Both the position numbers and the translations under genes were made by a program. This document shows, one piece after another, positions 2,439 to 59,185 of a stretch of DNA of 61,108 nucleotides; positions within the stretch are counted from its first letter, which is position 1; every line of letters starts with the position of its first letter. The stretch lies in the IMG/VR virus record IMGVR_UViG_3300007512_000037, positions 1 through 61,108 of that record. One strand, 5' to 3'. The notes below the pieces were generated by a model. It searched no databases. It saw only the letters and a list, made by a program, of their open reading frames with translations, and was not told the origin of the DNA. The DNA comes from a virus.

Positions 2439-3326
2439 ATGCCTGATACAGAAACTCAAAAAGCTAATACTCTCGGCGATCTTTCCGTAAACATAAATAG
2501 GCTTATTGATGGGGAGTCTATCGAGTCTGAGCGTAAAGACTTAGTTGCTTCTTGGTATCTCAATTCCAAGGTGTTTGAAGGGAAGTTGATTCATTCAACT
2601 AAAACCCTTGCTAAAACTATTTCTAAGAAATTAGATACTGAAATTGACCGCAAGGATATAGAACTAGATATAAGGGAAATTAAGTCTACGATTCGGACTT
2701 CCCTTTCCAACGAAGATAAGGCGGAGATAGTACAGGAACAGGTTGGGCTGATTCTTAATGAGGCACAGAAAGATAGGGGGCGGTCAGTAGAACTTTATGA
2801 GCAGTTACTTATCTCTATCGAGATTGAGCAAAAAAGGTTTGAAGAGCATAAAAGGAAAAACCCGGAACTATATGAGGGAACTGTAGAAAATAAAAAAGGC
2901 TTAGTACATCCTAGAGCAGTTTCGTTCTTTGCTACACCGATAGGTAAAAGCCTTCTATTCTATTTACAGACGCAACAACGGGTGTTATTTGAAGCCAATG
3001 ATCGGGTTTCCTCGATGCTACAGAAAATTCTGGACTTTGGTAACTCAAAAGAAACAGCCGAGCATATAAACCGTATTTTGAATCAGAACTCAGATAGCGC
3101 TAAAGAGCCTCTTACGGTTGAAAAAGCTATGGAGCTTCTTACTTACAGCTCCCCTGATCAAGATATATTACCCCAAGAATCCGGGGCGGTGGATATAGAT
3201 TATGATTCGTTTGAGGTTCCTAGCGAAAATTTAACCCCTGCGCTCCCCGGCCCCTTGCCCGGAAAAGCGCAATTAACGGACCTTACGGATGACCCTTTTT
3301 TGGAAGACTACCCGGAAGTAGCTTGA
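2439..3326 (+). CDS. Putative terminase small subunit (295 aa)
   Basis: First gene of the rightward operon, directly before the large terminase, which is where phages usually carry the small DNA-recognition subunit. It is charged and helical. Residues about 45-85 contain a helix-turn-helix-like stretch (LIHSTKTLAKTISKKL), and the middle is coiled-coil-like; the C-terminus is acidic and Pro/Gly-rich, ending DPFLEDYPEVA. At 295 aa it is long for a small terminase. The start has no clear ribosome-binding site, so an alternative start cannot be excluded. Assignment rests mainly on position. Confidence 0.5.
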   Translation: MPDTETQKANTLGDLSVNINRLIDGESIESERKDLVASWYLNSKVFEGKLIHSTKTLAKTISKKLDTEIDRKDIELDIREIKSTIRTSLSNEDKAEIVQEQVGLILNEAQKDRGRSVELYEQLLISIEIEQKRFEEHKRKNPELYEGTVENKKGLVHPRAVSFFATPIGKSLLFYLQTQQRVLFEANDRVSSMLQKILDFGNSKETAEHINRILNQNSDSAKEPLTVEKAMELLTYSSPDQDILPQESGAVDIDYDSFEVPSENLTPALPGPLPGKAQLTDLTDDPFLEDYPEVA

Positions 3327-3446
3327 CTTTAATATAAGCTAGAGCTTAGCCTTATATAGTCTATGATTGAATAGGCGTAGTCCGTATCAGGTGTGGCTCC
3401 TTGGTTGGCTTTTGGCTTGTCCAAGGGGCCTTGCTTTTTAGAGACT

Positions 3447-5024
3447 ATGAATCTAATCACCGATCCAAAACAACTTGCAATAATGAAAAAATGCAAGTCA
3501 AACCCTGGATTTTTCATAAATAACCATTGCAAGATCATTGATGCTGTAAAGGGGTTAATAAGATTTAAGCTTTTTAAGTTTCAATATTACTGTCTTGCTA
3601 ATTTTCTAAAATCTAGGTTTAGCATAATCCTAAAACCTAGACAGATGGGTATTTCCTACCTTGTCTCTAATTTCTGCCTTTGGTATGCAATCTTTTTTCC
3701 ATACAAAAATATCCTTATTGTCTCCCTGAGGGAAAGAGAAGCAAAACGCTTTTTAGAGAAAATTAAGATTGCTTATAAGGCGCTACCGGAATATATGCAG
3801 TTAGAAATCACTAACGGAAAAAAGGGGGATTACGGAACTACTACTTTGATGGAGTTTACTAATGGCTCTCGTATAGAGTCTGTGCCTACTTCCAAGGATG
3901 CGGGTAGGTCAGAGGGTTTGTCTTTGCTTGTGATTGATGAGGCAGGCTTTGTATCACATATTGAGGATATTTGGGCCGCTGCTAGACCTACTCTAGCGAC
4001 TGGTGGATCGTGCATAATTATGTCTACCATGAATGGTATAGGAAATTTCTTTTATCAAACCTGGACAAAGGCATTAGAAAAAGCGAACAGCTTTAACCCT
4101 ATAAAGCTACACTACAAAATGTTTCCCGGAAGAGACGAAGTATGGGCGGCTAAGGAATTGGCTGATCTTGGGCCTTTGAGATATGCACAAGAGGTTTTAT
4201 GTGAGGCGTTAACTTCTGGTAGAGCTTACTTTAATCTACTGTTTATGCGGGAGCAGGAGGAAGAAGTAAAAGAGAAATGGGATAAAAAGCAGCGCCCTAT
4301 TGATAAGGTAATGCAATATTTTAAAGAACAGTATGCTATAGATGAGAGTAATTACATACAAAGTGGAAGCCACGGCAGGCCTCCAGTGTATCTATCAGAA
4401 GCTTTAATCAGTAAAGAGGATTTATTGATTTGGGAGGAGCCACGCCCGGAGGCTAGATATTGCATGGGCTGTGATGCGGCTAAAGCTCTAACAGATGAGC
4501 ATGATAACCAAGCATTACAAATTGTAAACTACGAGACAAATGAGTTAGCCCTAGAATACATGGGAAAAATAAGCACTAGTCAATATACTTATTTGATCAT
4601 GTATTTGAGCTTTTATTACAATGATGCGTTTACTGCTATCGAGAGTAATTCTATTGGATGGTCTATAATAGAATTATTACTAGAGCTTGGGTTTCCAGAA
4701 GATAGCCTATATACTCAGATTAAACACCAAAGAAAACGTAGCCAATTTGAAGAAGACCAAGATACAGAAACTTTCGGGTTTTACACTAGTCAGACTACTA
4801 AGCCTATAATACTGCAGTATTTGCAAGGCTTGTATGAAGATGGTAGCTTTAAGCAGAGATCGGTTAGGGCTATAAATCAGCACTACACTTATCATTGGCT
4901 TAATAATACGGCTATAGGTGCGTTGCCGGGTTACTGTGATGACTTAGTTATGGCATCGGCTATAACACAAGAATGCAGAAAAAAATATGAGCCTTATTTT
5001 GATGTTGGGATGAGAGTTGGTTAA
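3447..5024 (+). CDS. terL: Terminase large subunit, ATPase and nuclease (525 aa)
   Basis: Motor that translocates DNA into the prohead through the portal and cuts the concatemer. The ATPase domain has a deviant Walker A, KPRQMGIS, with the Lys at the start as in lambda gpA; a Walker B, LLVIDEAGF; and a coupling motif, IIMSTMNG. The C-terminal RNase H-like nuclease domain shows the acidic triad in MGCDAAKAL, AIESNSIGW and YCDDLVMAS. The ATG at 3447 (MNLITDPKQ) is preferred; a GTG at 3393 would add 18 residues that do not resemble the family. The stop overlaps the portal start (TTAATGA). Confidence 0.93.
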   Translation: MNLITDPKQLAIMKKCKSNPGFFINNHCKIIDAVKGLIRFKLFKFQYYCLANFLKSRFSIILKPRQMGISYLVSNFCLWYAIFFPYKNILIVSLREREAKRFLEKIKIAYKALPEYMQLEITNGKKGDYGTTTLMEFTNGSRIESVPTSKDAGRSEGLSLLVIDEAGFVSHIEDIWAAARPTLATGGSCIIMSTMNGIGNFFYQTWTKALEKANSFNPIKLHYKMFPGRDEVWAAKELADLGPLRYAQEVLCEALTSGRAYFNLLFMREQEEEVKEKWDKKQRPIDKVMQYFKEQYAIDESNYIQSGSHGRPPVYLSEALISKEDLLIWEEPRPEARYCMGCDAAKALTDEHDNQALQIVNYETNELALEYMGKISTSQYTYLIMYLSFYYNDAFTAIESNSIGWSIIELLLELGFPEDSLYTQIKHQRKRSQFEEDQDTETFGFYTSQTTKPIILQYLQGLYEDGSFKQRSVRAINQHYTYHWLNNTAIGALPGYCDDLVMASAITQECRKKYEPYFDVGMRVG

Positions 5025-6460
5025 TGAAAATCTCTAATTTAGTAACTCAGTTTGCAAACCAGATCACAAAACCGGACTTCTCTTTTAGTCTCCTGGAAAA
5101 AGGAGGGGAAGCAGAGATTAAACCTACGGTCGATTTTGACTTAATGAATATTCTTACTGAAAAATCAGTATTAATTCCTGATGTATCCCAAGCGGTAAAG
5201 AATGCTCAAAACACCGGCAATACTGATTATACCCTTGAATATGAGTTCGAGGATTCAGTAAACACCGAGGAGAAGAAAGCTGAGATAATCGAAAAAGCGG
5301 CGGATGAGATTCGTAAATTTGCCCGGACTGTTTACCCTTCCTCAAATTTAAAGGGGTTTATTAACGATGCTATCGGTAACATTATGCGTAATGGTGCGAT
5401 TGGTGTTGAATGGGTTCCAAGAAATGACTTAGAGGGAATGCAAAAAGTATTGATTATCCCTACCTACTCAATCCGGTGGTTTAGAAAAAAGGCCGGAAAA
5501 CTTGAGCTAAGGCAAAAAGTACCGATCCGGCTTATGCTTGGACAGAGTAGAACTACCTTTAAGCAGTATATTAAACTCAATGCTAAAACTGTTATTTACA
5601 AAGCTTTGGAAACTATCGATGGAAACCCATACGGCGTTCCCCCTTTCTTATCTGTTTTAACCCCTCTTCAAACTCAAGAAAACTTCTTTGATAACTTGAG
5701 AAAATACGTCAAGAAACTTGGGGTAATGGGGTTTTTGAAAATTCTGTTTAGGCCTCCTGCTAAAGGAAGATCCGAGAGTGATTCTGCCTACGCCGCAAGA
5801 TTGGAGAAACTACTTGATGACAATGTGGAAAAATATAGAGGTAATTTTTCTGATGGCTTAGCCGTAGGGTTCCAAAAACATCACGAAATAGAACACCAGG
5901 ATATAGGAGCGTCAGGGAGCGCAGACGGAGCATATAAGCTTAATCAGATGAATGAGGAGCAGGTGTTTTCCGCCCTTAATCAAGACCCCGCACTAGGAGG
6001 CAGAACCTACTCTACTACTGAAACCTACGCCGGGGTAGTTTATGACAAATACCTTAACGGTATGCACATGCCTCAAAGTATGATTGCCGATATCTTATCT
6101 GTAGGATTGCAGATGCACTTAATAATGAAAGGGTTGCCAATAAAAGAAGTAACTGTAAAGTTTAAGAAAGCAAAATCCCTTACTAATAAAGTCGATGCAG
6201 AAGCTAGTTTTATGGAGCAGAAAGTTCAGCATGGTTTGTATGAAGATGGTATTACAGACCAGAATCAATATGCCGGTAATATGGGCTTTGATAAACCCTC
6301 TTTATCTGAACCTCGTTATCCCTATGCTTCGGATGTTGAAACACAAGCTGAGTTTGATAATCAAGTAAGTAAAAGGGAGGATGAAAATGGCACAAGACAA
6401 ACTAAAGACGAAAAAGAAAAAGGGGTTAAAAAATCTGAGTCAAGAACAAAGAGAAAATGA
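5024..6460 (+). CDS. Portal protein (478 aa)
   Basis: Forms the dodecameric ring at the capsid vertex through which DNA enters and to which the connector binds. Position directly after the large terminase and before the protease-scaffold, the length, and the pattern of an alpha/beta wing followed by a long helical stem (residues about 190-300) fit portal proteins. The segment TYAGVVYDKYLNGMHMP and later text resemble the crown/clip region of large portal families. The lysine-rich C-terminus (from about residue 455) shares DNA with a second frame that encodes the 54-aa ORF at 6387. Confidence 0.8.
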   Translation: MKISNLVTQFANQITKPDFSFSLLEKGGEAEIKPTVDFDLMNILTEKSVLIPDVSQAVKNAQNTGNTDYTLEYEFEDSVNTEEKKAEIIEKAADEIRKFARTVYPSSNLKGFINDAIGNIMRNGAIGVEWVPRNDLEGMQKVLIIPTYSIRWFRKKAGKLELRQKVPIRLMLGQSRTTFKQYIKLNAKTVIYKALETIDGNPYGVPPFLSVLTPLQTQENFFDNLRKYVKKLGVMGFLKILFRPPAKGRSESDSAYAARLEKLLDDNVEKYRGNFSDGLAVGFQKHHEIEHQDIGASGSADGAYKLNQMNEEQVFSALNQDPALGGRTYSTTETYAGVVYDKYLNGMHMPQSMIADILSVGLQMHLIMKGLPIKEVTVKFKKAKSLTNKVDAEASFMEQKVQHGLYEDGITDQNQYAGNMGFDKPSLSEPRYPYASDVETQAEFDNQVSKREDENGTRQTKDEKEKGVKKSESRTKRK

Positions 6461-6551
6461 AATAGAGCAACTAAAGTTTAAGAAACAAAATCTTGATGTT
6501 GACTTTATTAGGGTAAGTTCGGATATTATTAGAGGTAGTACACAGGAGTAA
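6387..6551 (+). CDS. Small basic hypothetical protein (54 aa)
   Basis: A short gene that begins inside the portal gene in another frame and ends 5 bases before the next gene. The ATG at 6387 follows an AGGGAGG site with good spacing. The product is Lys/Gln/Glu-rich (KLKTKKKKGLKN, then a helical stretch). It could be a small head-assembly factor. No recognised family. Confidence 0.6.
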   Translation: MAQDKLKTKKKKGLKNLSQEQRENEIEQLKFKKQNLDVDFIRVSSDIIRGSTQE

Positions 6552-6556
6552 TCACT

Positions 6557-7858
6557 ATGAAATTCACAAAAGAGCAAGTTATACAGTTCTTAAAAGCCCT
6601 CACAGAAGCAGGCAAAGAAGTAAGAACTGAGAAAGAAACTAAGGCTTTAGCTACTCTTCACGGAGAAGATGGGTCTAGTTTTCAAACTACGTTTTCCCTT
6701 AGTGAGGCTGTTGTGCAAGAAGATTCGTTACCTGAGGAAACTAAGTTAACGGAAGAGGGAGTCGCTAAGTTTGAAAAAGGGCTAGACGGCTCAAAACATA
6801 AAAGAAAAATCGAGGCCGATAAAGATAACTTTGTTTCAAAAGTTTATCGAATGCTTTCCGAGCAGGTTGTAGCCGGAATTTATGATTTTTCTCATGTCCC
6901 AGACGGTAAGAAAATTACCGCTTTAGCGCAGGCACAGAAAGATAAAAAATTCGATGATCTAAAATTCTATAAAGATCATGACCTTTCTGTGGACAAGTTG
7001 GTAGGGCTAACTACTAAATCCTGGTTCGATAATAAGAGTGAGGTTTCCGGGGTTAATACTTCGGTTTTTGTTTATAAGCCTCTGGACGAGTCTTTTGCTA
7101 TTAAATTTGCAAAGGAATTTGTGGATTCAGTTAGTGTGGGGGTTTCTTTTGAGAAGAAGCGTTCCCACGAATTTGAAGACCCCTGGGATTTTTGGTATCT
7201 GCTCGGTCACGAGGTAGATGGGGAGCTGGTTAGGTTTCTGGTAACTGAGATTAACTTTGTTCAAGAGCTGTCTTCCGTATATGACGGGGCCGATCCTTCC
7301 GCTAAAGTGGATGGTGGGTTTAGTAAGTCAGAAGCAGAAACTTTTTCTAAGCAAGAAGCTCAGGAAATGATAGAAGCAGGCACTAAGCCCCTCACTGATC
7401 AAATCACAGCCCTAACGAAAGAGCGGGACACCCTGGCAGATGACAAAGAAAATCTACAAAAACAGGTAGATGAGTTCGGTAATGCAGAAGAGTTTCAAAC
7501 TCTAAAATCCGCTTACGGGGTTAGTTTATCTACTTTTGCCAAGTTTGGTTATGATGAATTTGAACGCAAAAAGAAAGAATTACTCAAGTTTTTGCGTTTG
7601 AAAGGTAAACAGAGTTTTATTCCCACAATCGAAAAATCAGAAGATTTCAAAATGGTTTCCGATTTCTTTACTTTATACAAAGAGGAGATTGAAACTGAGT
7701 TTGCTTTGAAATGTTCGGCTTGTGGAAATGATACTACTGTAGACAGGCAATCGTCTCAAGAAGTCGAGTCGGAGCCTGTAGAGCTAACAGTTACTAGTGT
7801 GGACAAAGAGCAAGAAAAAGCTTTAGACGTATTTTGTGAAAAAGTTCACGGAAATTAA
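6557..7858 (+). CDS. Prohead protease fused to scaffold-like domain (433 aa)
   Basis: Likely head-maturation protease with an internal scaffold. Residues about 90-250 carry signs of the serine prohead protease family: SVSVGVSFEKKRSHEFE, then the typical C-terminal strand VTEINFVQELSSVYDGADP. From about residue 265 there is an acidic coiled coil (PLTDQITALTKERDTLADD), as in scaffolding regions. The C-terminal part has a lone CSACG pair. It sits between portal and decoration/capsid genes, the usual place. In HK97-like phages protease and scaffold act inside the prohead and are cleaved out. Exact catalytic residues were not pinned down. Confidence 0.72.
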   Translation: MKFTKEQVIQFLKALTEAGKEVRTEKETKALATLHGEDGSSFQTTFSLSEAVVQEDSLPEETKLTEEGVAKFEKGLDGSKHKRKIEADKDNFVSKVYRMLSEQVVAGIYDFSHVPDGKKITALAQAQKDKKFDDLKFYKDHDLSVDKLVGLTTKSWFDNKSEVSGVNTSVFVYKPLDESFAIKFAKEFVDSVSVGVSFEKKRSHEFEDPWDFWYLLGHEVDGELVRFLVTEINFVQELSSVYDGADPSAKVDGGFSKSEAETFSKQEAQEMIEAGTKPLTDQITALTKERDTLADDKENLQKQVDEFGNAEEFQTLKSAYGVSLSTFAKFGYDEFERKKKELLKFLRLKGKQSFIPTIEKSEDFKMVSDFFTLYKEEIETEFALKCSACGNDTTVDRQSSQEVESEPVELTVTSVDKEQEKALDVFCEKVHGN

Positions 7859-44216: not shown

Positions 44217-46427
44217 ATGAGTAAAGAATGTACGAAATGCGAATTACATAGGTATGTAAGTGACGAATATCTGGAACAGTACCATAGGACTATTCAGAAA
44301 ATTAATCATGTAGAAGGGGAAGCTCCTGCTTTGCTGGTAATTATGCCTGCTCCTGATTTTGAACAAGATAGAAGAGTAAAGCAGTTTAGAAATCTTATGG
44401 ACAAACATTATAGGCACTATGATGATACTCAGATTTATTTATTTCACGCTGTTAGCTGTAACTACCCGAAGGGGAAAACTCTAAGTAAAAAGTGGATCGG
44501 TTTGTGTTCAGATAATCTAAAATTCGCAATAGAGGCCATAAAGAAAAAGCATAATGTTCTATCGGCCCTAGCTTGCGGGGTTGACTCTATTGTAGCGCTT
44601 AAGAAACTAGGGTTTGAGTTCTCAGATAAGCATAAGTCTTCAATCATGTATAACCGTAGGGTTAGGCATACTATAAATCCTTATGGTATTCCTACTTTTT
44701 GCGCTAGGACGTTCGATAAGCAGACTGTGGGTTCTTATAACGAAATGGTATGGGCTAGTGATCTAAAGTTTATGTGTGATTCCTTGGAAGGAAAGGTAAA
44801 GAAGCTTTCATATAAGCACCAATTAGTTTTAGGATCAGATCAAATAAAGAAGTTACATAGAGTAATTGAGAGAAAAATAAAGGAAAATGGAGAAATATGT
44901 GTATCAATAGATACAGAAACTAATAAGCTATCTATATACGGCAGAGAGTTAAGATTAAAGCTTCTAACAGTTCAGCTATCCTTCGAGTCCGGCAGAGCGT
45001 TTGTAATTCCTATTCAACATAAAGAGACTCCTAAGTTTGAGGATGATTTGAATATTAAATTCCTGCGCTGGTTTCTAAAGAATCCTAAAATCAAAAAAAT
45101 TGCTCATAACGGTATGTACGATTGGAGAGTTTTTAGAAAGTTAGGGTTTCAAATTAATGGGTGGGATTGGGATACCATTCTATTACATCATCTAGCTTAT
45201 GCTACTGAACCTCATGCGTTATCATATATAACTAAAGTTTTCACAGACTATGGGGATTACGACTCCGAGCTAGAGCATTATAAGTCAGATAATCCAGAGG
45301 CAGACCCTGGAAAAGGGGGAACTTACGCTAATGTACCTCTTAAAATACTGGCTAAGTATGGGGCCGGGGATGCGGTAGTTACATACGATTTACTGGCTAT
45401 TTTATTGGATGCTGTGGATGAGCTGGGGTTAAAGGAGTTTTATTTTAATCATGTGCGACGAGCGCAATTAGCTTTTCTGAATATGTCACATACGGGGATG
45501 AATTTAGATGAGGATAAATTGCGCTCGTATTTTAAGGAATACCAAGAGGAGCTGGATAGGTATTACAGGGAAGAAATATCACAACTACCCACAGTAATAG
45601 AGTTTGAAAAGAATAATGAAAAGAATAAGGAATACTGGGAGTTTATTAAAGATAGAGACGCATGGTGGAAAGCTAATCCTAGAAAGAAGAAGCCGCCACA
45701 AAAAAAGGAGTTTAACCCTAAAAGTTCGGATCAGTTAGGGGTATTTTTATCAGAGTTTTGTGATTTGCCTGTATTACTTAGGAGTAAAGGAAAGCAGTTA
45801 CCTTCCTATAGTAAAGAAGTAAGGGAGCATTTAATGTCCCTGCCTGAGGAGAAAAACGAGTATGGGGTAAGCTTTAGAATAGTCCATATTTTACATGACC
45901 ATCTTCTACAACGTCATGAGTTTAATACCTATATAAAAGGGATGTTAAATTCGGATATTATAGGATTAGATGGACGAATTCACGGTAATTTCAAGCTATT
46001 TGGTGCTGTTACTGGTAGAACTAGCTCTAGTGATCCCAATATGCAGAATATCCCAAGAAAGCCGCTGGTTGAGAAGTTTAATATTAAAGGACTGTTCACC
46101 GCGCCTAAAGGTAAAAAAATAATACAAGCCGACTACGGGCAAATGGAGCTTAGAGTAGCGGCCTCGGTATCCCAGGATGAGGGTATGCTTAAAGCTTTTA
46201 ATGACGGGGTGGATATTCATACTCTTACGGCGGCTAGGTTATATGGAATATCTACAGAAGAAGTGACAGATTTACAAAGGTTTTCAGCCAAGGCTATTAA
46301 CTTTGGGCTTATTTACGGCAAGGGGGAGGCTGCCTTAGCAGCCGACTACTACAAAGCGCTAGACGGGGATAAGGAAAAAGCTAAGGAAATGTATAGGAAG
46401 CTAGAACTGGAGGGCTACGGTGTATAG
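44217..46427 (+). CDS. DNA polymerase, family A, N-terminal part (736 aa)
   Basis: Carries, in order: a UDG-4-like domain with CTKCELH at the start (residues about 1-190), as in some phage polymerases; a 3'-5' exonuclease (VSIDTETN near 230, KIAHNGMYDWRVF near 300, GAGDAVVTYDLL near 385); and the polymerase up to the fingers, with motif A IIQADYGQMELRV (about 638) and motif B RFSAKAINFGLIYGKG (about 688). It stops after LELEGYGV, before motif C. The missing palm part is encoded at 46817. Stop overlaps the start of the ORF at 46420. Confidence 0.9.
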   Translation: MSKECTKCELHRYVSDEYLEQYHRTIQKINHVEGEAPALLVIMPAPDFEQDRRVKQFRNLMDKHYRHYDDTQIYLFHAVSCNYPKGKTLSKKWIGLCSDNLKFAIEAIKKKHNVLSALACGVDSIVALKKLGFEFSDKHKSSIMYNRRVRHTINPYGIPTFCARTFDKQTVGSYNEMVWASDLKFMCDSLEGKVKKLSYKHQLVLGSDQIKKLHRVIERKIKENGEICVSIDTETNKLSIYGRELRLKLLTVQLSFESGRAFVIPIQHKETPKFEDDLNIKFLRWFLKNPKIKKIAHNGMYDWRVFRKLGFQINGWDWDTILLHHLAYATEPHALSYITKVFTDYGDYDSELEHYKSDNPEADPGKGGTYANVPLKILAKYGAGDAVVTYDLLAILLDAVDELGLKEFYFNHVRRAQLAFLNMSHTGMNLDEDKLRSYFKEYQEELDRYYREEISQLPTVIEFEKNNEKNKEYWEFIKDRDAWWKANPRKKKPPQKKEFNPKSSDQLGVFLSEFCDLPVLLRSKGKQLPSYSKEVREHLMSLPEEKNEYGVSFRIVHILHDHLLQRHEFNTYIKGMLNSDIIGLDGRIHGNFKLFGAVTGRTSSSDPNMQNIPRKPLVEKFNIKGLFTAPKGKKIIQADYGQMELRVAASVSQDEGMLKAFNDGVDIHTLTAARLYGISTEEVTDLQRFSAKAINFGLIYGKGEAALAADYYKALDGDKEKAKEMYRKLELEGYGV

Positions 46428-46836
46428 GGGCATTATAGATTATAGGAATGCAGAGCTGGAAGATCATTGTTTATGTAATGACCTAAACACAAGGCGGAAG
46501 TTTAAGGCTACCCATGAAAGTACGCCATCCGAGATAGTGTGCATTAGGTGTTTTAAAAAGTATTGGTATGTGTATTCTGATTATTTTACAGATAAGAAAT
46601 TCTTGTTCCCTATAAGAGCTTATACAGAACTGGAAAAGGCTATAAGCATTTTAGGGCTGCCCGAATTAGGCGCACCTAGTTCATGGACTGAGCGCAGGTA
46701 TAACGAAATTTGTGAGCTTGTTTGTATTGACGAAGGGCATAGATCGGAGTTCTTTAATTTTTTTGATGCTTTTAGGTACGGTGTGCTTGAGCATAAGGCA
46801 GATTTGGGGGTTATGAATGGCTCGTTTAGACATTGA
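46420..46836 (+). CDS. Cys-rich ORF between the polymerase halves (138 aa)
   Basis: Unrecognised. Starts at a GTG overlapping the N-part stop by 8 bases and ends 20 bases into the C-part, in a frame different from both. It has CLCND and VCIRCF (CxC and CxxC), suggesting a small zinc ribbon, followed by an aromatic helical region (KKYWYVYSDYF). No HNH, GIY-YIG or LAGLIDADG motif was recognised. Could be a degraded mobile gene that split the polymerase, or a new accessory subunit. Confidence 0.65.
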   Translation: MYRGIIDYRNAELEDHCLCNDLNTRRKFKATHESTPSEIVCIRCFKKYWYVYSDYFTDKKFLFPIRAYTELEKAISILGLPELGAPSSWTERRYNEICELVCIDEGHRSEFFNFFDAFRYGVLEHKADLGVMNGSFRH

Positions 46837-47332
46837 AAGACCTGAGATTTTTGATAAATTAGCAGGCGCTATGATGAAGAAGTATTTTGCGGAATTTCCA
46901 GGGATTGCGGATTGGATTAAGCATACGCAAAGACAGGCTACCCAGGATCAAGTAACGGTTTCTATTTGGGGTAGGCGGGAAGATTTACCAGATATAACTT
47001 CTAAACATAGGATGAAGAAAGAGGAGGCCCTTAGGCAGGCTATTAATATGCCTATTCAGTCTGCTGCTAGTGATATCACTTTAGCAGCAGTATTTAAGGT
47101 GCATGAGTGGATTAATACTGACCCGAAATGTGAAGAAGCGGGATTGGTGATGGTGAATTCGGTTCATGATTCTATCGTATTTGAGTGTAAGGAGAACTAT
47201 GTAGAATGGGCATGTAAGAAAATTAAGTTAATCATGGAGGACAAGACAGGATTAGATTGGTTACTGTGTGTTCCTTCTGTAGATTTTGAAGTTGGAGATA
47301 ATTACGGGGAGCTGGAAGCTCTCGATATTTAA
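46817..47332 (+). CDS. DNA polymerase, family A, C-terminal part (171 aa)
   Basis: Continues the polymerase: YFAEFPGIADWIKHTQRQA (the helix after the fingers), GRREDLPDI, RQAINMPIQSAASDITLAAV and motif C, NSVHDSIVFE, with the catalytic Asp; Ser replaces the usual Glu, as in some other phage enzymes. The ATG directly follows an in-frame TGA (46814-46816), so this is a separate polypeptide, not a frameshift product. The two parts together contain all polymerase motifs, so a heterodimer is expected. Confidence 0.88.
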   Translation: MARLDIERPEIFDKLAGAMMKKYFAEFPGIADWIKHTQRQATQDQVTVSIWGRREDLPDITSKHRMKKEEALRQAINMPIQSAASDITLAAVFKVHEWINTDPKCEEAGLVMVNSVHDSIVFECKENYVEWACKKIKLIMEDKTGLDWLLCVPSVDFEVGDNYGELEALDI

Positions 47333-47343
47333 GGAGAAATATT

Positions 47344-48153
47344 ATGGCTTTAAATAGAGCTAATTTTAAGGGTAGAAAAAAGCTGAGCGATAAGTACCAA
47401 AAGAGTAAAGGGTATGGCCTGGAGTTTAGACCAGAAAAGGACGTTGAATATCAGATAGCTATTATTCCTTTGATGGATATGGAAGGTAATACTTTCCCTA
47501 ATCCAGATGCCGATTTGGTGGATACTGTTAGAGTTCATCAACAAGTAGGAAAAGATAAAAAGCAATCTGTTCTATGTGCTTCTTCTTTTGGCGCTAGGTG
47601 TCAGGTTTGTGAAATTGCTAAAGGGAGGATAACTACCAGGGCTGTTCATACAGTAGTTCTGCTTAAGGAGAGGAAAACTGAGGCAGGTAGTAAGTTTATT
47701 CCAGTTAGTTTACCTATGTCTTTTAATTGCCCTCTTCAAGAACTTGGGGATGGTTACATTGACTGTATTATGAATGAGGATTTTCCTGCTAATGATGATA
47801 TCCGTAAACTTGCGATATTTAAGTATTTTGTGACCGGGGAAAAGATTGATACAGAACATAAACTTACAATCCGCCCCTCCGGTTTTATTTTTGATGTTGC
47901 TACTCTTAGGCGGATAAGGAAGGATGATAATGGGAAAGTAGTCTATGATCCACAAGCCGATAAGGATGAGCTAGTTTTTAAAACTAAGACCGAGCTAATG
48001 ACTGAGCTTTCGTTGCCAGCAGTAGAGAGATTAAGTTGTCCGTATGAAAATCAGCAACTCGCAGCCGCTCGCGGGTTTGATGCTTATGAGAAGAAAGACA
48101 AGCTAGAAAGAATTCTTAGGAAGAATGAAATTATAGGAGGAGAAAATGAGTAA
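47344..48153 (+). CDS. Single-stranded DNA-binding protein, gp32-like (269 aa)
   Basis: Coats ssDNA at forks and recombination intermediates. Residues about 60-85 hold a zinc motif H-x12-C-x7-C-x2-C (HQQV ... LCASSFGARCQVCE), close to T4 gp32's H-x12-C-x9-C-x2-C. The preceding LEFRPEKDVEYQIAIIPL is the typical first OB strand region, and the N-terminal RANFKGRKKL resembles the gp32 cooperativity region. AAGGAG site. The tail ends in a mixed charged region, less acidic than in T4. Confidence 0.82.
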   Translation: MALNRANFKGRKKLSDKYQKSKGYGLEFRPEKDVEYQIAIIPLMDMEGNTFPNPDADLVDTVRVHQQVGKDKKQSVLCASSFGARCQVCEIAKGRITTRAVHTVVLLKERKTEAGSKFIPVSLPMSFNCPLQELGDGYIDCIMNEDFPANDDIRKLAIFKYFVTGEKIDTEHKLTIRPSGFIFDVATLRRIRKDDNGKVVYDPQADKDELVFKTKTELMTELSLPAVERLSCPYENQQLAAARGFDAYEKKDKLERILRKNEIIGGENE

Positions 48154-57777: not shown

Positions 57778-58049
57778 ATACGTGGTACAAAGTGTTTAAA
57801 TCTGATTTAGCTTACAGCCCAGCAGGGATAGGTTTAAGAGAAACTGAAAACTATGTAGATTTAGAAAGCGGAGGCAGTATATCTAGGGTAAAAAAGAATT
57901 CAAAGTTATTTATGTATTTTAGGGATAAAAGAAGGGCTTTAGATTACTGTGAAAGAAATTTAACAATCAGAATGGAGTCTCTACAATTTAAAGTAAGTGT
58001 ACTGAGCCATAAAAGATCGGCAGTACGGGGGGAGCTGAGAAAATGTTGA
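57774..58049 (+). CDS. Hypothetical protein (91 aa)
   Basis: Unrecognised, basic, mixed alpha/beta (KLFMYFRDKRRALDYCERNL). Start at the ATGA overlap with the 30-codon ORF; overlaps the kinase gene by 7 bases. Base composition returns to the AT-rich norm here. Confidence 0.62.
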   Translation: MNTWYKVFKSDLAYSPAGIGLRETENYVDLESGGSISRVKKNSKLFMYFRDKRRALDYCERNLTIRMESLQFKVSVLSHKRSAVRGELRKC

Positions 58050-58600
58050 TATTAGGATTAGCGGGACATGCAGGAACGGGGAAAGATTTTCTTTGTGAGC
58101 AGATAATTAAGAACTACCCTGAGTATAGGTTTCATAGGTATGCGTTAGCAGATTTTCTTAAGGAGCTGATGTGTGTTGTACTCGATATGTCTATGGAGGA
58201 GATTAACGAGAGGAAAGGGGATAAAGACTTTAGGCAAAGGTTAATTGATTTTTCAGAGCTTGGGATTAAAAAAGTGGATCATGAGTTCTGGATTAAGAAG
58301 TTTTGGAAGGATGCACAACAAAAACGCAGGAACTACATTATTACCGATCTTAGATACCATGAAGAGCTTCATTTTATGGAAAAGCTACACGGCAAAGATA
58401 ACGTAGTATTCTTTTCTACTTACGTAAAAAGGGTACATGCAGGTGTTTATAGGCATTGCGGGATGCAGATTGCGCCTTTTCAGTGTGATACATATATTGA
58501 TCATATAGATATAAGTAATCTGGAAAGATATAAAGATAATCTTAGGCAACTTATTAGGACTGTTAATAGGGCCGTAAGCGCCTCTTGTATACGGGCTTGA
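58043..58600 (+). CDS. Deoxynucleoside monophosphate kinase (185 aa)
   Basis: P-loop kinase: ILGLAGHAGTGKDFLCEQI at the N-terminus, then HRYALADFLKELM and later NYIITDLRYHEELHFM, matching phage dNMP kinases (T4 gp1 type), though shorter than T4 gp1. It would phosphorylate dNMPs to raise dNTP pools or salvage degraded host DNA. GGGGGGAG site. Followed by a 100-base intergenic stretch. Confidence 0.8.
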   Translation: MLILGLAGHAGTGKDFLCEQIIKNYPEYRFHRYALADFLKELMCVVLDMSMEEINERKGDKDFRQRLIDFSELGIKKVDHEFWIKKFWKDAQQKRRNYIITDLRYHEELHFMEKLHGKDNVVFFSTYVKRVHAGVYRHCGMQIAPFQCDTYIDHIDISNLERYKDNLRQLIRTVNRAVSASCIRA

Positions 58601-58699: not shown

Positions 58700-59185
58700 A
58701 TGAATGGAAAAGGTAGGCAAAATAAAGGCAAGAACTGGGAAAGACGCTGTGCTAAAGCTCTCAGTGATTGGTCTGGCATAGAATTTCGCAGAACAAAAGG
58801 ATCGGGGGCGGATAAGGATGCTTATACCCTAGCCCACGAATTAGGGGATATTAGGCCGAAAGACCCCCTGCATTTTGAGCAATTTCCGTTATTAGTTGAA
58901 TGCAAGGCAGTAGGAAAATTCCCATTTCACCAGATTTTACTAGGACAATGTAAGGTTTTGGATTCGTGGATAGGGCAGGTATTTGGAGATAGAAAGATAT
59001 TGCAGGAGAAGGCGGGACTTAAAAAGGACTGTATAGTGATATTTAAGGCTAATAACGTGCCTGCTATGGTAGTCATAAATATACCTGTTTTAAGTAACTG
59101 TATTTATAGGGGTTGGAGGGTATTAGCTCTTGATACCTTACTGTCAACCTTTAGCTTAAAAGACCTTTGCAATTATAAAAAGTAG
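58700..59185 (+). CDS. PD-(D/E)XK nuclease, resolvase-like (161 aa)
   Basis: NKGKNWERRCAKALSDWSG with a Glu in the first helix, RRTKGSG, then ELGDIRPKD and FPLLVECKAVGKF form the E...GD...ExK pattern of restriction-like nucleases, close to Holliday-junction resolvase-like phage proteins. It could resolve branched DNA before packaging, complementing gp46/47. AAGGAG site. Confidence 0.72.
   Translation: MNGKGRQNKGKNWERRCAKALSDWSGIEFRRTKGSGADKDAYTLAHELGDIRPKDPLHFEQFPLLVECKAVGKFPFHQILLGQCKVLDSWIGQVFGDRKILQEKAGLKKDCIVIFKANNVPAMVVINIPVLSNCIYRGWRVLALDTLLSTFSLKDLCNYKK

What the first reader, a model, noticed from the sequence alone, without database searches (positions are those of the whole stretch)
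44217..47332. Family A DNA polymerase split into two genes with an unknown Cys-rich ORF between them
The N-part has exonuclease, motif A and motif B; the C-part has the post-finger helix and motif C. The break is between the fingers and motif C. The intervening 138-aa ORF overlaps both parts and all three frames differ, so neither a frameshift nor an intein explains it. A gene inserted at a conserved polymerase site recalls homing-endonuclease splits of T4-type gene 43 (e.g. Aeromonas phage 25), but no homing-nuclease motif is recognised. The ORF may be a decayed mobile gene or a third subunit bridging the halves.
Basis: partly seen in the sequence, partly recalled or inferred. Interest (0 to 1): 0.82.

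Follow-up and report, generated by a model that had tools for sequence, protein, structure and literature searches.

The report
Phage DNA polymerase in two pieces
An uncultured phage appears to make its family A DNA polymerase as two separate proteins, with a third, unknown cysteine-rich protein encoded between them and no detectable intron or intein to rejoin the pieces; such splits are known, but the break point and the inserted gene look new.

Summary
A family A DNA polymerase lies in three overlapping genes: N-part (44217-46427; exonuclease, motifs A and B), a 138-aa ORF (46420-46836) and C-part (46817-47332; motif C). All catalytic motifs I looked for are present. About 30 intact relatives cross this site in one reading frame. 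The break falls between the O and P helices of the fingers.

I find no support for one. Rfam finds nothing at E<=10, while it scores polA introns in SPO1, Youna2 and phiAGATE. The ORF fills most of the ~482-nt insert. Coding signal follows the three frames and switches at the proposed starts. Both internal starts have strong Shine-Dalgarno sites. The C-part's extra N-terminus is coding-like, and a structure model shows it supplying its own helix P.

Best reading: a genes-in-pieces polymerase whose halves are translated separately and assemble. The ORF has no detectable homologue or homing-nuclease motif, so its role is open. A published precedent exists: OM43 phages MEP401/MEP402 have a split family A polymerase with a different small unknown ORF at a different position. 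New variant of a known kind.

The parts
44217..46427 (+). N-part of the family A DNA polymerase: N-terminal Cys-containing region, 3'-5' exonuclease, palm motif A, fingers motif B (736 aa)
   Evidence: Pfam PF01612 and PF00476 27-242; motifs at 232, 298, 381, 639, 688; Klenow homology to about residue 709
46420..46836 (+). ORF138, GTG start, Cys-rich (CxC-21-CxxC plus C98, C102), unknown function
   Evidence: Coding score +0.14 per codon against -0.20 and -0.49 in the shifted frames; no family, no homologue
46817..47332 (+). C-part of the polymerase: helix P onward, motif C VHDS (171 aa)
   Evidence: Pfam PF00476 232-381; AlphaFold2 mean pLDDT 88.4 with helix 9-26; Foldseek matches to Taq, Bacillus and E. 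coli Pol I and Pol theta
46395..46876 (+). Minimal insert relative to intact relatives (482 nt). Boundaries are ambiguous: certain polymerase homology ends near 46343 on the left and resumes near 46850-46862 on the right
   Evidence: Alignments with intact relatives and with Klenow; length modulo 3 matches the frame offset
46409..46414 (+). Shine-Dalgarno GGAGGG for ORF138
   Evidence: Duplex -9.8 kcal/mol, 2.8% of other start codons do as well
46806..46810 (+). Shine-Dalgarno GGGGG for the C-part
   Evidence: Duplex -9.6 kcal/mol, 3.1% of other start codons do as well
46817..46876 (+). N-terminal extension of the C-part, MARLDIERPEIFDKLAGAMM; predicted to form most of helix P
   Evidence: Coding score 0.43 per codon, with the switch at 46817; helix 9-26 in the model; anchored helix profile P about 0.02
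46392..46460 (+). Imperfect 20-nt direct repeat (16/20), copies 46392-46411 and 46441-46460; the first copy starts at the break
   Evidence: 2.5% of shuffles give as good a repeat within 100 nt, 0 of 300 give one at the junction. Post hoc

Best explanation
A genes-in-pieces family A DNA polymerase. A ~0.5-kb segment carrying ORF138 was inserted between helices O and P of the fingers, and both polymerase halves became independently translated genes. Shown by sequence: three overlapping coding frames, each with its own ribosome-binding site; complete catalytic motifs across the two halves; an uninterrupted site in relatives. Inferred: the three proteins are made from one transcript with coupled translation; N-part (exonuclease, motif A, O helix) and C-part (helix P, rest of the palm, motif C) bind each other to rebuild one active site; ORF138 is either the insertion's own product (an unrecognised mobile-gene product) or, less likely, an added subunit.
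For: Pfam halves tile the domain; all catalytic motifs kept; coding signal switches N to ORF138 to C with the C frame starting at 46817; strong Shine-Dalgarno sites at both internal starts; C-part folds confidently with its own helix P (pLDDT 88.4) and matches Pol I structures; about 30 relatives, 28 of them phage or viral contigs, are uninterrupted here and 47 of 60 phage records sampled across the ranking bridge the site in one piece at 79% coverage or more; no intron although Rfam scores polA introns in SPO1, Youna2 and phiAGATE; natural precedents with activity for split gp43 and NrdA (PMC2988022) and a published split family A polymerase in MEP401/402 (PMC10580990).
Against: No close relative was found, so conservation of the split and selection on the halves could not be measured. 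Neither half's helix-P stretch scores as well as any of 26 relatives (3.5 and 0.2 against 13.7 or more). Assembly of the halves and activity are unproven. The window is a metagenomic contig, so a misassembly cannot be formally excluded.
Confidence: 0.7

Rival explanations
1. A self-splicing intron (group I, or an undescribed kind) interrupts an ordinary polymerase gene; ORF138 is the intron ORF and one polymerase is made after splicing.
For: Group I introns are common in phage polA (PMC11878797) and two of my comparison phages, Youna2 and phiAGATE, carry introns in this part of the gene. Removing 482 nt would restore one frame, with U before and G at the end of the insert at one choice of boundaries.
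Against: No Rfam match at E<=10 in 1.4 kb or 531 nt; fold no better than shuffles (z +0.89); at most about 65 nt of the insert lies outside ORF138, against 350 +/- 108 nt of non-coding sequence in Bastillevirinae introns; the C-frame is coding-like inside the supposed intron and both internal starts have strong Shine-Dalgarno sites.
Confidence: 0.12
2. ORF138 is a third subunit that bridges or stabilises the two polymerase halves, like an added processivity or assembly factor, and is needed for activity.
For: It is co-transcribed and overlaps both halves; it has a strong ribosome-binding site and positive coding scores; its Cys pattern could bind zinc. MEP401/402 also keep a small unknown ORF between their polymerase halves.
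Against: No homologue, no confident fold (pLDDT 43.7), no similarity to MEP401 gp14 (E 0.56). Position between the halves is equally expected for a passenger gene.
Confidence: 0.15
3. Two programmed +1 frameshifts at the stop codons (TAG-G and TGA-A) join all three ORFs into one polymerase with a ~160-aa insert domain.
For: Both frame changes are +1.
Against: Independent Shine-Dalgarno sites at both starts; two recoding events in one gene; no prfB-like spacing at either stop; no relative has such an insert domain.
Confidence: 0.03
4. Assembly chimera or sequencing errors in a metagenomic contig, or a dead polymerase gene.
For: Single metagenomic record; reads are not available here.
Against: A 482-nt coding insert with matched start signals is not a simple error; all catalytic motifs are intact; base composition of the insert (40% G+C) matches the flanks (38% and 41%).
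Confidence: 0.08

Closest known systems
Split family A DNA polymerase of Methylophilales (OM43) phages MEP401 and MEP402 (Zobellviridae; PMC10580990, OP830906/OP830907)
   Same: Family A polymerase in two ORFs (exonuclease plus N-terminal polymerase; C-terminal polymerase) separated by one small unknown ORF; tight gene packing; no group I intron found by Rfam in MEP401
   Different: Their break is before motif A, ours after motif B; gp14 (77 aa) is not similar to ORF138; theirs is seen in two isolates and most group I metagenomic genomes, ours in one contig
Aeromonas phage 25 / 44RR split gene 43 and Aeh1 split nrdA (genes-in-pieces; PMC2988022)
   Same: Essential phage replication enzyme split by an inserted segment; separately translated halves that assemble into active enzyme
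   Different: Family B polymerase or ribonucleotide reductase; in phage 25 and Aeh1 the inserted gene is a recognisable homing endonuclease (seg, mobE)
Group I introns in polA of SPO1, Bastille, phiAGATE, Youna2
   Same: Interruption of a phage family A polymerase in or near the fingers, with an ORF in the insert
   Different: Those have a detectable ribozyme core, a long non-coding part and usually a homing-nuclease ORF; none of these is detectable here
Split PolB with intein in jumbo phage MIJ3 (PMC6892783)
   Same: Polymerase gene split in two with an ORF between
   Different: Intein blocks at the break; none here

Membership tests
Family A DNA polymerase | DNA_pol_A domain with motifs A, B and C and the 3'-5' exonuclease motifs | tested here: met
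   domain tiled 27-242 and 232-381; all motifs present across the two ORFs
Genes-in-pieces phage enzyme (Aeh1 nrdA, phage 25 gene 43 type) | Halves encoded by separate, separately translated genes | tested here: met
   By sequence only: coding frames and Shine-Dalgarno sites; protein not observed
Genes-in-pieces phage enzyme (Aeh1 nrdA, phage 25 gene 43 type) | Relatives have an uninterrupted gene at the site | tested here: met
   About 30 relatives
Genes-in-pieces phage enzyme (Aeh1 nrdA, phage 25 gene 43 type) | Inserted gene is a homing endonuclease | tested here: not met
   No family match and no LAGLIDADG, GIY-YIG or HNH pattern
Genes-in-pieces phage enzyme (Aeh1 nrdA, phage 25 gene 43 type) | Halves assemble into active enzyme | not testable with these tools
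   Needs expression and assay
Group I intron-interrupted polA | Group I ribozyme core | tested here: not met
   No Rfam hit at E<=10; SPO1, Youna2 and phiAGATE introns scored
Group I intron-interrupted polA | Transcript is spliced | not testable with these tools
   No RNA data
Intein or split intein | Intein in frame with both exteins, or intein fragments on both halves | tested here: not met
   Three different frames, tails of 8 and about 20 aa, no HN[CST] end in ORF138, no intein family match
MEP401-type split polymerase | Break before motif A with a gp14-like ORF | tested here: not met
   Break after motif B; ORF138 against gp14 E 0.56

The most novel reading that the evidence does not exclude
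A three-subunit family A replicative polymerase in which the inserted Cys-rich ORF138 has become a required zinc-binding subunit that holds the two halves of the fingers together.
Probability: 0.12. Interest if true: 0.8.

Novelty: new variant of a known kind. Interest (0 to 1): 0.52.

Why it matters
If the halves work as separate proteins, the O/P junction in the fingers, a part that moves at every nucleotide addition, tolerates a chain break. That would give a natural split site for family A polymerases and a second independent case, after MEP401/402, of a family A polymerase divided around a small unknown gene. It would also allow a direct test of whether such small ORFs are passengers or subunits.

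Tried and rejected
Group I or group II intron: Rfam on 1.4 kb and 531 nt, RNA folding against shuffles, with SPO1, Youna2 and phiAGATE as positive controls. Intein and homing-nuclease patterns: none. Homologues of ORF138: tblastn in phages and plasmids, none; pattern-seeded scans of viral and genome contigs, none, but these only see close relatives; none in 1.25 Mb of fetched loci (best E 0.5). AlphaFold2 on ORF138 alone was poor (pLDDT 43.7), so no fold search was run on it. Close relatives of the phage: scans with N-part, C-part, the SbcC-like protein and alignments gave only distant polymerases; two degenerate DNA patterns gave nothing. 'Helix P is duplicated in both halves' was considered: the anchored profile gives P about 0.007 and 0.02, suggestive only. 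The genome-contig scan with the polymerase alignment returned bacterial Pol I and was not used. Two top 'phage' hits, MT837997 and MT838268, look like bacterial Pol I contigs; they were kept in the helix-profile panel and MT837997 in alignment A5, not counted as phage relatives.

Full report
What is there. Three overlapping + strand ORFs occupy 44217-47332: N-part (736 aa), ORF138 (138 aa, GTG start) and C-part (171 aa), each in a different frame. The first and last tile the Pfam family A polymerase domain almost exactly (27-242 and 232-381 of 381), and the N-part also carries the 3'-5' exonuclease domain. Exonuclease motifs, motif A and motif B are in the N-part and motif C is in the C-part. 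Nothing catalytic that I looked for is missing.

Where the break is. Sequence comparison with E. coli Klenow places the end of clear homology of the N-part at chain position 452 and the start of the C-part's at 459. From established Pol I structure this is between the O/O1 helices and helix P of the fingers. Against gapless relatives the smallest insert is 482 nt (46395-46876), but the boundaries are uncertain by tens of bases on each side. About 30 relatives, 28 of them phage or viral contigs, run through this point in one open frame. In a sample of 60 records spread over the 5000 best phage matches, the 47 that cover at least 79% of a joined query all do so as one alignment piece.

Is it an intron? 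Phage polA is a favourite home of group I introns (PMC11878797). Two comparison phages fetched here, Youna2 and phiAGATE, have introns in this part of the gene, and Youna2's two exons are annotated as separate proteins. Rfam scores those and SPO1's (31.4, 16.7 and 25.6 bits) but gives nothing at E<=10 for this window in 1.4 kb or 531 nt. The insert RNA folds no better than shuffled sequence (z +0.89). ORF138 leaves at most about 65 nt of the insert free, against 350 +/- 108 nt of non-coding sequence in Bastillevirinae introns. An undescribed intron type cannot be excluded without RNA data.

Are three proteins made? Codon usage scored against this phage's own genes is positive in the N frame up to the break, then in the ORF138 frame, then in the C frame. 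ORF138 scores +0.14 per codon in frame and -0.20 and -0.49 out of frame. The C frame becomes strongly positive (0.43) in the window that starts at 46817, that is, already in the stretch which is not clear polymerase. ORF138's score is lower than the phage average (0.28) and within the range of some long ORFs that overlap real genes on the other strand, so this evidence alone is moderate. Both internal starts also have strong Shine-Dalgarno sites, GGAGGG for 46420 and GGGGG for 46817 (-9.8 and -9.6 kcal/mol; about 3% of other start codons do as well; the mean of listed genes is -6.7).

Does the C-part make sense alone? AlphaFold2 with 16 viral-contig homologues gives mean pLDDT 88.4. Residues 9-26 form a helix that includes the extension, and only residues 1-6 are below 50. 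Foldseek matches the model to Taq, Bacillus and E. coli Pol I and to Pol theta. The homologue rows include helix P, which may help the prediction. An anchored profile of helix P from relatives scores the C-part stretch at P about 0.02 and the N-part stretch at P about 0.007 against decoys, both weaker than every relative. The likely picture is that each half carries a version of this helix; I regard that as suggestive.

What ORF138 may be. It is Cys-rich (CxC-21-CxxC and two more; P about 4e-4 for the count) and has no LAGLIDADG, GIY-YIG, HNH or intein-end pattern. It matches no family or solved structure and has no homologue in 50,697 phage or 72,556 plasmid records by tblastn. It is not similar to the intron ORFs of Youna2 or phiAGATE, to SPO1 gp31.2 or to MEP401 gp14. 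Its single-sequence fold is not reliable. A CxC...CxxC pattern is compatible with a zinc ribbon, which is a guess. A 20-nt imperfect repeat joins the break (46392) to the start of ORF138 (46441), in frame in both; it might be a scar of the insertion but was found post hoc.

Most likely mechanism. A segment carrying ORF138 entered the fingers and the polymerase survived as two separately translated chains that associate. Shown: anatomy, start signals, empty site in relatives. Inferred: association, activity, origin of ORF138. T4-type precedents show that such halves can be active: Aeh1 NrdA is fully functional and phage 25 gp43A/B co-purify with polymerase activity (PMC2988022).

Known or new. 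The closest case is in print. MEP401 and MEP402 have a family A polymerase in two ORFs with a small unknown ORF between, in most members of their group, and the authors could not say whether it is an intron (PMC10580990). I read the MEP401 and MEP402 sequences: the break there is before motif A, gp14 is 77 aa and unrelated to ORF138, and Rfam finds no group I intron in MEP401. The present case is therefore a new variant: another break point, another inserted gene.

Limits. No close relative was found, the viral and genome scans use short exact patterns and see only near relatives, no metagenome scan was available, and the record is a single metagenomic contig.

Noticed in passing
L012 (Weizmannia phage Youna2, OM293949) 3133-3839: The two 'DNA polymerase' genes annotated in Youna2 are probably exons of one polA split by a group I intron (Rfam Intron_gpI 31.4 bits, E 1.9e-4), with a 132-aa ORF inside.
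   Followed up: partly
L007 (MT121964) 3923-7685: The polA of phage DP SC_6_H4_2017 is one 1092-aa ORF with what looks like an intein (HNH-like core) inserted just before the TGR/SGR motif, and an HNH-like gene follows directly.
   Followed up: no
window 44217-44770: The N-terminal ~180 aa of the polymerase N-part carry Cys at 5, 8, 81 and 97, a spacing like the iron-sulphur Cys of family 4 uracil-DNA glycosylases; Youna2 polymerase has a similar N-terminal region (weak BLAST, E 0.013). Pfam gives no match.
   Followed up: partly
window 47344-48153: The 269-aa gene right after the C-part has no Pfam, PHROG, NCBIfam or phage tblastn match; its position next to the polymerase suggests a single-stranded DNA binding protein.
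   Followed up: partly
window 46392-46411 and 46441-46460: Imperfect 20-nt direct repeat (80%) linking the end of the N-part to the start of ORF138, in frame in both (YRKLELE / YRNAELE).
   Followed up: partly
L008 (MT837997) and L009 (MT838268): Two GenBank records named 'Bacteriophage sp.' (marked UNVERIFIED) carry ordinary bacterial-type DNA polymerase I and look like bacterial contigs.
   Followed up: no
window 58043-58600 and 58700-59185: Phosphomevalonate/deoxynucleotide monophosphate kinase-like gene and a phage PDDEXK_15 nuclease gene.
   Followed up: no
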